In this document: piece by piece, positions 2,004 to 3,618 of the stretch | Numbering within the stretch: position 1 is the first letter of the stretch | How the letters are laid out: every line of letters starts with the position of its first letter | NCBI RefSeq assembly: GCF_036860695.1 | Contig: NZ_JAYKGJ010000001.1 | Coordinates: 1,302,001-1,366,000, forward strand | Source of the DNA: Rosettibacter firmus | GTDB taxonomy: Bacteria > Bacteroidota > Ignavibacteria > Ignavibacteriales > Melioribacteraceae | Direction of reading: 5' to 3' | Length of the DNA stretch: 64,000 bases | The notes under the pieces: generated by a model | Seen by the model: only the letters and a program-made list of their open reading frames with translations | The model's database searches: none | Told to the model about the DNA's origin: nothing | Position numbers and translations under genes: made by a program

Positions 2004-2034
2004 TTGACAAATCTAACTTCAAAATTTACCTTTG
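2004..2034 (+). promoter_or_regulatory. Bacteroidota-type promoter of the trp leader and trpB
   Basis: TTG (inside TTGACA, 2004-2009) is followed after exactly 20 bases by TACCTTTG (2027-2034). This fits the Bacteroidota primary-sigma consensus with a -33 TTG and a -7 TAnnTTTG. A start site 4-6 bases beyond the -7 box would fall at or next to the A of the leader-peptide ATG at 2039. The transcript would then have practically no 5' untranslated region. Confidence 0.7.
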
Positions 2035-2038
2035 AACC

Positions 2039-2104
2039 ATGAATTTAAAATCAATTAATATTGTAAATAACTGGTGGTGGAGAATAATTTCTCTACCGTC
2101 CTAG
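2039..2104 (+). CDS. trpL: trp operon leader peptide (21 aa, three consecutive Trp codons)
   Basis: A 21-codon reading frame runs from ATG 2039 to TAG 2102-2104 and contains the run NNWWWRIISLPS. The three TGG codons occupy 2072-2080. Tandem Trp codons in a short peptide just before a terminator hairpin and a tryptophan synthase gene are the hallmark of ribosome-mediated attenuation. When charged tRNA-Trp is scarce the ribosome would stall on these codons. No Shine-Dalgarno sequence precedes the ATG and the predicted transcription start coincides with it, so translation is probably leaderless. The sequence and position make this a strong call, though the peptide itself is too short to compare by homology. 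Confidence 0.9.
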   Translation: MNLKSINIVNNWWWRIISLPS

Positions 2105-2158
2105 GTCTATATATTTTATGAAAGAGCCGTGGATGGTAGAACCATTCACGGCTTTTTT
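2076..2158 (+). promoter_or_regulatory. Tryptophan attenuator: pause hairpin 1:2, antiterminator 2:3, terminator 3:4
   Basis: Three mutually exclusive pairings can be drawn. Pairing 1:2 is GGTGGAGAA (2076-2084) with TTCTCTACC (2089-2097), nine pairs with one G-U and a TAAT loop; it overlaps the Trp codons. Pairing 2:3 is TCTACCGTCC (2092-2101) with GGATGGTAGA (2131-2140), ten pairs with one G-U; this is the antiterminator. Pairing 3:4 is the terminator at 2125-2153. A ribosome stalled at the Trp codons masks segment 1 and frees segment 2 to trap segment 3, allowing read-through into trpB. A ribosome reaching the stop at 2102 masks segment 2 and lets the terminator form. Confidence 0.88.
2125..2158 (+). 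terminator. Intrinsic terminator of the trp attenuator
   Basis: AGCCGTGGATGG (2125-2136) pairs with CCATTCACGGCT (2142-2153): twelve pairs including one G-U, with a five-base TAGAA loop. A run of T follows (2153-2158, then GTTTT). It lies between the leader stop codon and the trpB ribosome binding site, so it controls read-through rather than ending the upstream gene. Confidence 0.92.
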
Positions 2159-2208
2159 GTTTTAAAGTAATTTGAAATTGAGAAGACATACAAACACAGG
2201 AGGTTAAA

Positions 2209-3528
2209 ATGTCAGAAAACAAAATCGTTTTTCTTGAGCAAACGAAAATGCCCACTCATTATTACAACATTTTAGCAGACTTGCCCAAACCACTTGATCC
2301 ACCATTAAATCCAGCAACAAAACAACCAGCAACACCCCAGGAACTTGCTGCAATATTTCCAATGGATTTAATTATGCAAGAAGTAACGCAGGAAAGATTT
2401 ATTGAAATTCCAGATGAAGTAAGAGATTTATACAGGTTAAGTAGACCAACACCATTAATTCGAGCAGCAAATTTAGAAGCCGAATTACAAACTCCAGCAA
2501 AAATTTATTTTAAGTACGAGGGAGCCAATCCAACAGGAAGTCACAAGACAAATACTTCTTATGCACAGGCATATTACAATAAAAAAGCTGGAATAAAAAA
2601 ACTTGTAACAGAAACAGGAGCTGGTCAATGGGGAAGTGCACTAGCAATGGCCTGTAAACATTTTGGATTAGAATGTGAAATATTTATGGTAAAAGTAAGT
2701 TATAATCAAAAACCTTATCGAAAAACATTTATGAGATTATTTGGTGCTACAGTTCATGCAAGTCCAACAAATTTAACAAATGCAGGAAGAAAAGTTTTAG
2801 AAAAAGATCCAGATTCACCGGGATCACTGGGTATTGCAATTAGCGAAGCAATTGAAGTTGCAGTTCAAAGAGATGATACAAATTATAGTCTTGGAAGTGT
2901 ATTAAATCATGTATTATTACATCAAACAATAATTGGCGAAGAAGCACGTCTTCAAATGGAAATGCTCGATGAATATCCAGATGTTGTAATTGGTTGTGTG
3001 GGCGGTGGAAGTAATTTTGCTGGTATTGCTTTTCCATTTCTGCGTGATAAACTAAATGGCACAAAGAAAAATCTTGAAGTAATTGCTGTTGAACCTTCTT
3101 CGTGTCCATCTCTCACAAAAGGAAAATTTGATTATGATTTTGGAGACGAAGCAGGATTAACTCCTTTAATTAAAATGTATACACTTGGCCATGATTTTAT
3201 TCCACCTAAAATTCATGCAGGTGGTTTACGTTATCATGGAATGGCTCCTACAATTTCATTGCTTTATAATATAGGAGCAATTAATGCAAAAGCATATGGT
3301 CAGCTCGAAGTATTCAAAGCAGCACAACTTTTTGCTCAATGTGAAGGAATTGTGCCAGCTCCAGAAAGCTCTCATGCTGTAAAAGAAGTTATTGAACAGG
3401 CTTTAAGATGTAAAGAAACCGGTGAAGCAAAAACTATTTTGTTCAATTTATCCGGTCACGGATTTTTAGATCTGGGAGCTTATGAACTTTATCTTGAAAA
3501 TCTTCTTGACAATGGTAACAGTAAGTAA
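2209..3528 (+). CDS. trpB: Tryptophan synthase beta chain, TrpB2 type
   Basis: This is a PLP enzyme of 439 residues that condenses indole with serine to form tryptophan. The PLP lysine is in NPTGSHKTN (about residue 112), the phosphate-binding loop is [10 protein letters not shown] (about 264) and the catalytic-face motif is [12 protein letters not shown]. The extra N-terminal segment and the stretch [16 protein letters not shown] mark the TrpB2 subtype rather than the TrpA-partnered TrpB1. TrpB2 enzymes often work without TrpA, and some prefer O-phosphoserine. The start has a strong Shine-Dalgarno (AGGAGG, nine bases upstream). No trpA or other trp gene is adjacent. The attenuator in front shows that expression responds to tryptophan supply, which supports a biosynthetic or indole-salvage role. 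Confidence 0.95.
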
Positions 3529-3557
3529 AATATTCAGCGTAATCATCATTTAATTTT

Positions 3558-3590
3558 AATGCCCGCTGCTAATTGCGGGCATTTCATTTT
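3558..3590 (+). terminator. Terminator after trpB
   Basis: AATGCCCGC (3558-3566) pairs perfectly with GCGGGCATT (3575-3583) across an eight-base loop, followed by TCATTTTTTTAA. It separates the convergent trpB and argH genes. On the opposite strand the stem is followed by AAAATT only, so it may be weaker for argH. Confidence 0.9.
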
Positions 3591-3618
3591 TTTAATAAAC
3601 CAAAAAATTAGAAATAAC

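What the first reader, a model, noticed from the sequence alone, without database searches (positions are those of the whole stretch)
2004..2158. Complete tryptophan attenuator with a probably leaderless leader peptide in front of trpB2
Seen: a 21-codon frame with Trp-Trp-Trp, stop at 2102, and three exclusive pairings (2076-2084/2089-2097, 2092-2101/2131-2140, 2125-2136/2142-2153) with a T-run. The -7 box TACCTTTG ends only four bases before the leader ATG, so the transcript should start at or beside it; no Shine-Dalgarno is present. Established: ribosome-mediated attenuation with tandem Trp codons is known from Proteobacteria and others. Inference: here the switch starts with leaderless translation and controls a lone TrpB2, in a phylum where attenuation is little studied.
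Basis: partly seen in the sequence, partly recalled or inferred. Interest (0 to 1): 0.78.

Follow-up and report, generated by a model that had tools for sequence, protein, structure and literature searches.

The report
Leaderless tryptophan attenuator before trpB2
Just upstream of a stand-alone tryptophan-synthase gene (trpB2) lies a classic tryptophan-sensing RNA switch: a 21-codon leader with three Trp codons whose start codon is probably the first bases of the transcript, conserved in related bacteria including some that have lost the rest of the tryptophan pathway.

Summary
The leader is 2039-2104 (MNLKSINIVNNWWWRIISLPS*). The three pairings 1:2, 2:3 and 3:4 are real (fold z -6.85), and the terminator ends in a T run. 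The same arrangement precedes trpB2 in many Ignavibacteria. In an 18-sequence set the antiterminator pairs in 122 of 126 cells, with changes on both sides at three pairs (0 of 1000 shuffles reach this). The predicted transcription start is exactly the A of the leader ATG, using the -7 box position (-12 to -5) mapped in Flavobacterium. The spacing is conserved: 26 of 55 Trp leaders have a strong promoter 2-9 nt before an in-frame start (0.15 expected), while 21 other strong promoters in about 870 kb of this genome lie at least 20 nt from their gene. No start site was measured. The same genome has a second, near-leaderless Trp leader before trpEGDCFBA, wired differently. Three relatives without trpE, trpC, trpA and trpB1 keep trpB2 with its attenuator, which points to indole salvage. 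The mechanism is textbook; leaderless trp leaders are known in Sinorhizobium and Streptomyces, and trp attenuators in Bacteroidota. A well-supported new member of a known kind.

The parts
2004..2009 (+). -33/-35 element TTGACA
   Evidence: Exact match, 17-nt spacer to the -7 box; the TTGAC-N17-TAnnTTTG pattern is enriched before genes of this genome, 21 against 6.7 +/- 2.1 in shuffles, 13 of the 21 with spacer 17.
2027..2034 (+). -7 box TACCTTTG (TAnnTTTG)
   Evidence: Exact consensus; in Flavobacterium this box occupies -12 to -5 (PMC9723704), which puts +1 at 2039.
2039..2104 (+). Leader peptide ORF MNLKSINIVNNWWWRIISLPS*, predicted leaderless
   Evidence: Direct reading; conserved Trp run in relatives.
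2072..2080 (+). Three tandem Trp codons TGGTGGTGG, inside the 5' arm of stem 1:2
2071..2084 (+). Region 1
   Evidence: Pairs with 2089-2104; 1:2 pairing P <= 0.05 in 15 of 29 trpB2 leaders.
2089..2104 (+). Region 2 (antiterminator core 2092-2101); also holds the stop codon 2102-2104
   Evidence: Pairs with region 1 or with region 3.
2131..2140 (+). Region 3, mimic of the Trp-codon strand, pairs with 2092-2101
   Evidence: 24 of 29 trpB2 leaders P <= 0.05; covariation.
2120..2158 (+). Intrinsic terminator 3:4, core 2125-2136/2142-2153, T-rich tail 2153-2163
   Evidence: conserved hairpin plus T run in relatives. The simple consensus scan does not list it.
2196..2203 (+). Shine-Dalgarno region of trpB2 (AGGAGG)
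   Evidence: Sequence.
2209..3528 (+). trpB2, stand-alone TrpB-like enzyme, 439 aa
   Evidence: TIGR01415 676 bits (cut-off 519), NF009057 732 bits; GSHKTN motif.

Best explanation
A ribosome-mediated transcription attenuator that senses charged tRNA-Trp and controls trpB2. RNA polymerase starts at or within a base or two of 2039, so the transcript begins with the AUG and the first ribosome loads without a Shine-Dalgarno sequence. With enough Trp-tRNA the ribosome runs to the stop at 2102 and covers region 2, the terminator 2120-2158 forms, and transcription ends before trpB2. When Trp-tRNA is short, the ribosome stalls on codons 12-14 (2072-2080) and masks region 1; region 2 pairs with 2131-2140, the terminator cannot form and trpB2 is made. 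If the leader is not translated, 1:2 and 3:4 form and transcription ends. Shown here: the parts, their exclusive pairings, conservation, covariation and promoter spacing. Inferred: the start site, ribosome stalling, the direction of control, and the role of TrpB2 in making Trp, probably from indole.
For: Parts and folds. Trp-run leaders before trpB2 in most Melioribacter/Stygiobacter-like relatives and in about half of 30 class-level loci, with terminators. 2:3 pairing P <= 0.05 in 24 of 29. Covariation at 2:3. Promoter 2-9 nt before an in-frame start in 26 of 55 trpB2/trpE leaders, 0.15 expected; the 21 other strong promoters near genes in about 870 kb of this genome have gaps of at least 20. 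A second Trp leader before the trp operon. Trp attenuator kept on trpB2 in genomes lacking trpE, trpC, trpA and trpB1.
Against: No transcription start or termination data. The -12 to -5 calibration comes from Flavobacterium, not Ignavibacteria. Gaps of 7-13 in some relatives allow 5' UTRs of 3-9 nt, so 'leaderless' is not strict everywhere. A weak sigma-70-like site (1972-2000, 9 of 12) could give a leadered transcript. About half of the class-level trpB2 genes show no recognisable Trp leader.
Confidence: 0.88

Rival explanations
1. The same Trp attenuator, but on a leadered transcript: transcription starts upstream (weak site 1972-2000, or read-through from the 1315-1989 gene) and the leader is started by an SD-independent route.
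For: A 9-of-12 sigma-70-like match at 1972-2000; the upstream gene ends only 14 nt before TTGACA; many genes here lack an SD (44% have one).
Against: A perfect TTGAC-17-TAnnTTTG lies in between, and its short spacing to the start codon is conserved in diverged relatives.
Confidence: 0.12
2. A ligand- or protein-bound terminator/antiterminator (riboswitch, T-box or TRAP-like); the short ORF is incidental. The Rfam trpB motif RF04312 was proposed as such a riboswitch candidate.
For: Sub-threshold RF04312 match, 37 of 59 bits.
Against: Tandem Trp codons are conserved in frame with start and stop; the conserved region is small and explained by pairing; RF04312 is a Firmicutes/Fusobacteria motif whose authors do not exclude attenuation (PMC11109978), and its weak matches elsewhere in the class are plain terminators.
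Confidence: 0.03
3. Only the terminator of the upstream gene plus a chance ORF.
For: An intrinsic terminator follows a gene on the same strand.
Against: Own strong promoter after that gene; three exclusive pairings; Trp run and covariation conserved before trpB2; fold z -6.85.
Confidence: 0.01

Closest known systems
trpL attenuator of the E. coli trp operon (general knowledge)
   Same: Short leader with tandem Trp codons, exclusive 1:2, 2:3 and 3:4 pairings, T-run terminator.
   Different: Trp3, predicted 0-nt 5' UTR without SD, region 2 inside the ORF, controls a lone trpB2.
rnTrpL/peTrpL of Sinorhizobium meliloti (PMC7298713) and trpL1 of Streptomyces lividans (PMC8079986)
   Same: Transcript starts at the leader ATG; Trp codons; attenuation of a trp gene.
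   Different: Other phyla, target trpE, different sequences.
Bacteroid-trp, Rfam RF01692 (Weinberg 2010, PMC2864571)
   Same: Trp3 leader in Bacteroidota; 10 of 29 members examined here also have the start 1-7 nt after TAnnTTTG.
   Different: 24 of 49 bits, below cut-off; the members found here are nearly all in one other family; most have a 12-16-nt 5' UTR by the same reckoning.
trpB motif, Rfam RF04312 (PMC11109978)
   Same: Two hairpins, second a terminator, antiterminator in the right shoulder of the first; sometimes upstream of trpB.
   Different: 37 of 59 bits; Firmicutes/Fusobacteria; no Trp leader ORF described; proposed as riboswitch candidate.
Attenuator of trpB2A in Corynebacterium diphtheriae (PMC1262725)
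   Same: Predicted Trp attenuator at a trpB2-named gene.
   Different: Second trp operon of an actinobacterium, not a stand-alone trpB2.

Membership tests
Ribosome-mediated Trp attenuator | Short ORF with tandem Trp codons | tested here: met
Ribosome-mediated Trp attenuator | Mutually exclusive antiterminator and intrinsic terminator | tested here: met
Ribosome-mediated Trp attenuator | Target gene in Trp metabolism | tested here: met
   (TrpB-like, TIGR01415); enzymatic activity not tested
Ribosome-mediated Trp attenuator | Read-through rises when Trp-tRNA is scarce | not testable with these tools
   Needs an experiment
Leaderless leader-peptide mRNA | Transcription start at the start codon | tested here: inconclusive
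   Predicted +1 = 2039 from box spacing; no start-site data
Leaderless leader-peptide mRNA | No Shine-Dalgarno before the leader | tested here: met
Rfam Bacteroid-trp RF01692 | Score over the curated cut-off of 49 bits | tested here: not met
   23.9 bits; own genome no match
Rfam trpB motif RF04312 | Score over the curated cut-off of 59 bits | tested here: not met
   37 bits; 20 relatives none
Rfam Trp_leader (proteobacterial) | Match to the covariance model | tested here: not met
   Not among matches up to E 10

The most novel reading that the evidence does not exclude
In Ignavibacteria leaderless translation start is largely reserved for Trp leader peptides, tying ribosome loading to RNA polymerase from the first nucleotide. 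Trp attenuation of a stand-alone trpB2, kept after loss of the whole pathway, would mark TrpB2 as a Trp-controlled indole-salvage enzyme, with two differently wired Trp attenuators in one genome.
Probability: 0.45. Interest if true: 0.6.

Novelty: new member of a known kind. Interest (0 to 1): 0.42.

Why it matters
It extends covariation-supported Trp attenuation to Ignavibacteria and gives a testable case of leader-peptide translation from an AUG at the RNA 5' end in the Bacteroidota group, where leaderless mRNAs are only about 4-6% (PMC7366714, PMC9723704). Regulation is also a clue to enzyme function: the role of stand-alone trpB2_o genes was left open in 2007 (PMC1854888; indole salvage was later reported in Thermococcus kodakarensis, cited in PMC11085991). 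A Trp-specific attenuator on trpB2 in genomes lacking the other trp genes argues that it makes Trp from scavenged indole.

Tried and rejected
(1) The 22-nt exact copy at C1:482376 (L002) is a chance match inside a coding gene. (2) RF04312 as identity: sub-threshold, and its class-wide weak matches are plain terminators. (3) RF01692 as identity: sub-threshold. (4) Eight other TGGTGGTGG sites of the genome were examined; only the one before trpE sits in a start-to-stop leader-like ORF. (5) For trpE leaders the classical 2:3 wiring (5' arm) failed in 25 of 25; pairing with loop plus 3' arm passed in 19 of 25. (7) MAFFT columns were slightly out of register for 2:3, so covariation was counted on anchored segments; shuffles there do not correct for relatedness. 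(8) The terminator scan missed the hairpin, probably because the stem runs into the T tract.

Full report
OBSERVATION. The window reads TTGACA (2004-2009), 17 nt, TACCTTTG (2027-2034), AACC, ATG (2039), then 21 codons MNLKSINIVNNWWWRIISLPS and TAG at 2102-2104. The RNA 2039-2163 folds at -44.8 kcal/mol against -21.25 +/- 3.44 for shuffles, z -6.85. Its two hairpins are 2071-2084/2089-2104, which contains the Trp codons, and 2120-2158, a terminator running into a T tract. The alternative pairing 2092-2101/2131-2140 forms when the 3' arm is not yet made (z -3.94). The downstream gene is a stand-alone TrpB-like enzyme over both curated cut-offs, preceded by AGGAGG. argH and other arginine genes follow on the opposite strand.

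RELATIVES. TrpB2 searches gave 110 loci. Trp-run leaders stand about 130-210 nt before trpB2 in nearly all Melioribacter/Stygiobacter/Ignavibacteriales loci with enough upstream DNA and in about half of the 30 class-level loci; looser versions occur in KSB1, Caldithrix and others. Examples: MKFKNINIANNWWWRSFSLPS (94% identical TrpB2), MNFRNQNSANNWWWWRKLSLLS, MKNETRNNKNFWWWWSNTFPLS (70%). A T-run terminator follows. Region 2 pairs with the 5' arm of the terminator better than shuffles (P <= 0.05) in 24 of 29. In 18 Ignavibacterial sequences, 122 of 126 cells of the seven anchored 2:3 pairs are standard pairs; three pairs show changes on both sides (C-G to U-A), and none of 1000 column shuffles reaches the observed values. 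The shuffles ignore relatedness, so this supports the pairing but is not an exact probability. The terminator sequence is itself strongly conserved, as expected when region 3 must imitate the Trp-codon strand.

LEADERLESSNESS. In Flavobacterium psychrophilum the TAnnTTTG box lies at -12 to -5 (PMC9723704), so a box ending at 2034 puts +1 at 2039, the A of ATG. Among 55 trpB2 and trpE leaders, 26 have a strong promoter 2-9 nt before an in-frame start codon; shuffled upstream DNA gives 0.15. Typical gaps are 4-8 nt, i.e. 5' UTRs of 0-4 nt. In about 870 kb of the same genome (800 kb plus window plus the trp operon region), the 21 other strong promoters near genes have gaps of 20 nt or more (gene starts are my own mechanical calls). 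Leaderless mRNAs are a small minority in Bacteroidota (3.7% with 5' UTRs under 10 nt in B. thetaiotaomicron, 5.5% in F. psychrophilum). So the spacing is unusual for genes and typical for these leaders. The start site itself is not measured.

SECOND ATTENUATOR. The genome has a full trpEGDCFBA operon preceded by TTGACA-18-TATATTTG-8-ATG, leader MKTRKVTYYFNSVWAWWWWQVYIRTISVT* and a terminator. Such leaders occur before trpE in most of 30 relatives. Their wiring differs: region 2 does not pair with the 5' arm (0 of 25) but with loop plus 3' arm (19 of 25, P <= 0.05). A recurrent TYYFN stretch in the leader matches an RNA segment complementary to one just after the stop (TACTTCAA/TTGAAGTA in this genome).

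FUNCTION OF TrpB2. G009, G145 and G187 (98-100% complete) have no trpE, trpC, trpA or trpB1 over cut-off, yet keep trpB2 with leader, terminator and antiterminator (L092, L086, L088; for L086 and L088 the pairing was scored on loci L006 and L011, which carry the same leaders). This fits a Trp-controlled enzyme that makes Trp from indole and serine. Indole salvage by TrpB2 has been reported in Thermococcus kodakarensis (Hiyama 2014, as cited in PMC11085991).

COMPARISON. Rfam: no gathering hit for this element in the window or 20 relatives; RF04312 37/59 bits, RF01692 23.9/49 bits. The RF04312 trpB motif belongs to Firmicutes and Fusobacteria. Bacteroid-trp members in other Bacteroidota show two spacing classes, 1-7 nt (10) and 16-43 nt (19), so near-leaderless Trp leaders also occur in that family. 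Leaderless trp leaders are experimentally known in S. meliloti and S. lividans. A predicted attenuator at trpB2A exists in C. diphtheriae. The case is therefore a new member of a known kind; its leaderless start and lone trpB2 target are the interesting features.

Noticed in passing
L148:7940-8140 (minus strand; G000:C2 about 426940-427140): Second Trp leader (MKTRKVTYYFNSVWAWWWWQVYIRTISVT*) before trpEGDCFBA, near-leaderless, with region 2 pairing to loop plus 3' arm of the terminator instead of the 5' arm; same wiring in 19 of 25 relatives.
   Followed up: partly
L092, L086, L088 (upstream of trpB2): Genomes that lack trpE, trpC, trpA and trpB1 keep trpB2 with an intact Trp attenuator, suggesting indole salvage.
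   Followed up: partly
L227-L255: Rfam Bacteroid-trp leaders fall in two classes by distance from -7 box to ATG (1-7 nt, and mostly 16-20 nt), so near-leaderless starts occur there too.
   Followed up: partly
L086, L005, L009, L088 just after the terminator: A second terminator-like hairpin (such as AGCCGTGAAC...GGCTTTTT) follows the attenuator terminator in several relatives.
   Followed up: no
L106, about 150 nt before trpB2: Frame with Trp-Pro-Trp (NHTWPWRR*) after a TTGACA promoter, without an obvious terminator, in a genome (G119) that also lacks trpE; possibly a degenerate or different leader.
   Followed up: no
window 3529-3600: Intrinsic-terminator-like hairpin (GCCCGC...GCGGGC, T-rich tail) after trpB2, between it and the converging argH.
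   Followed up: no
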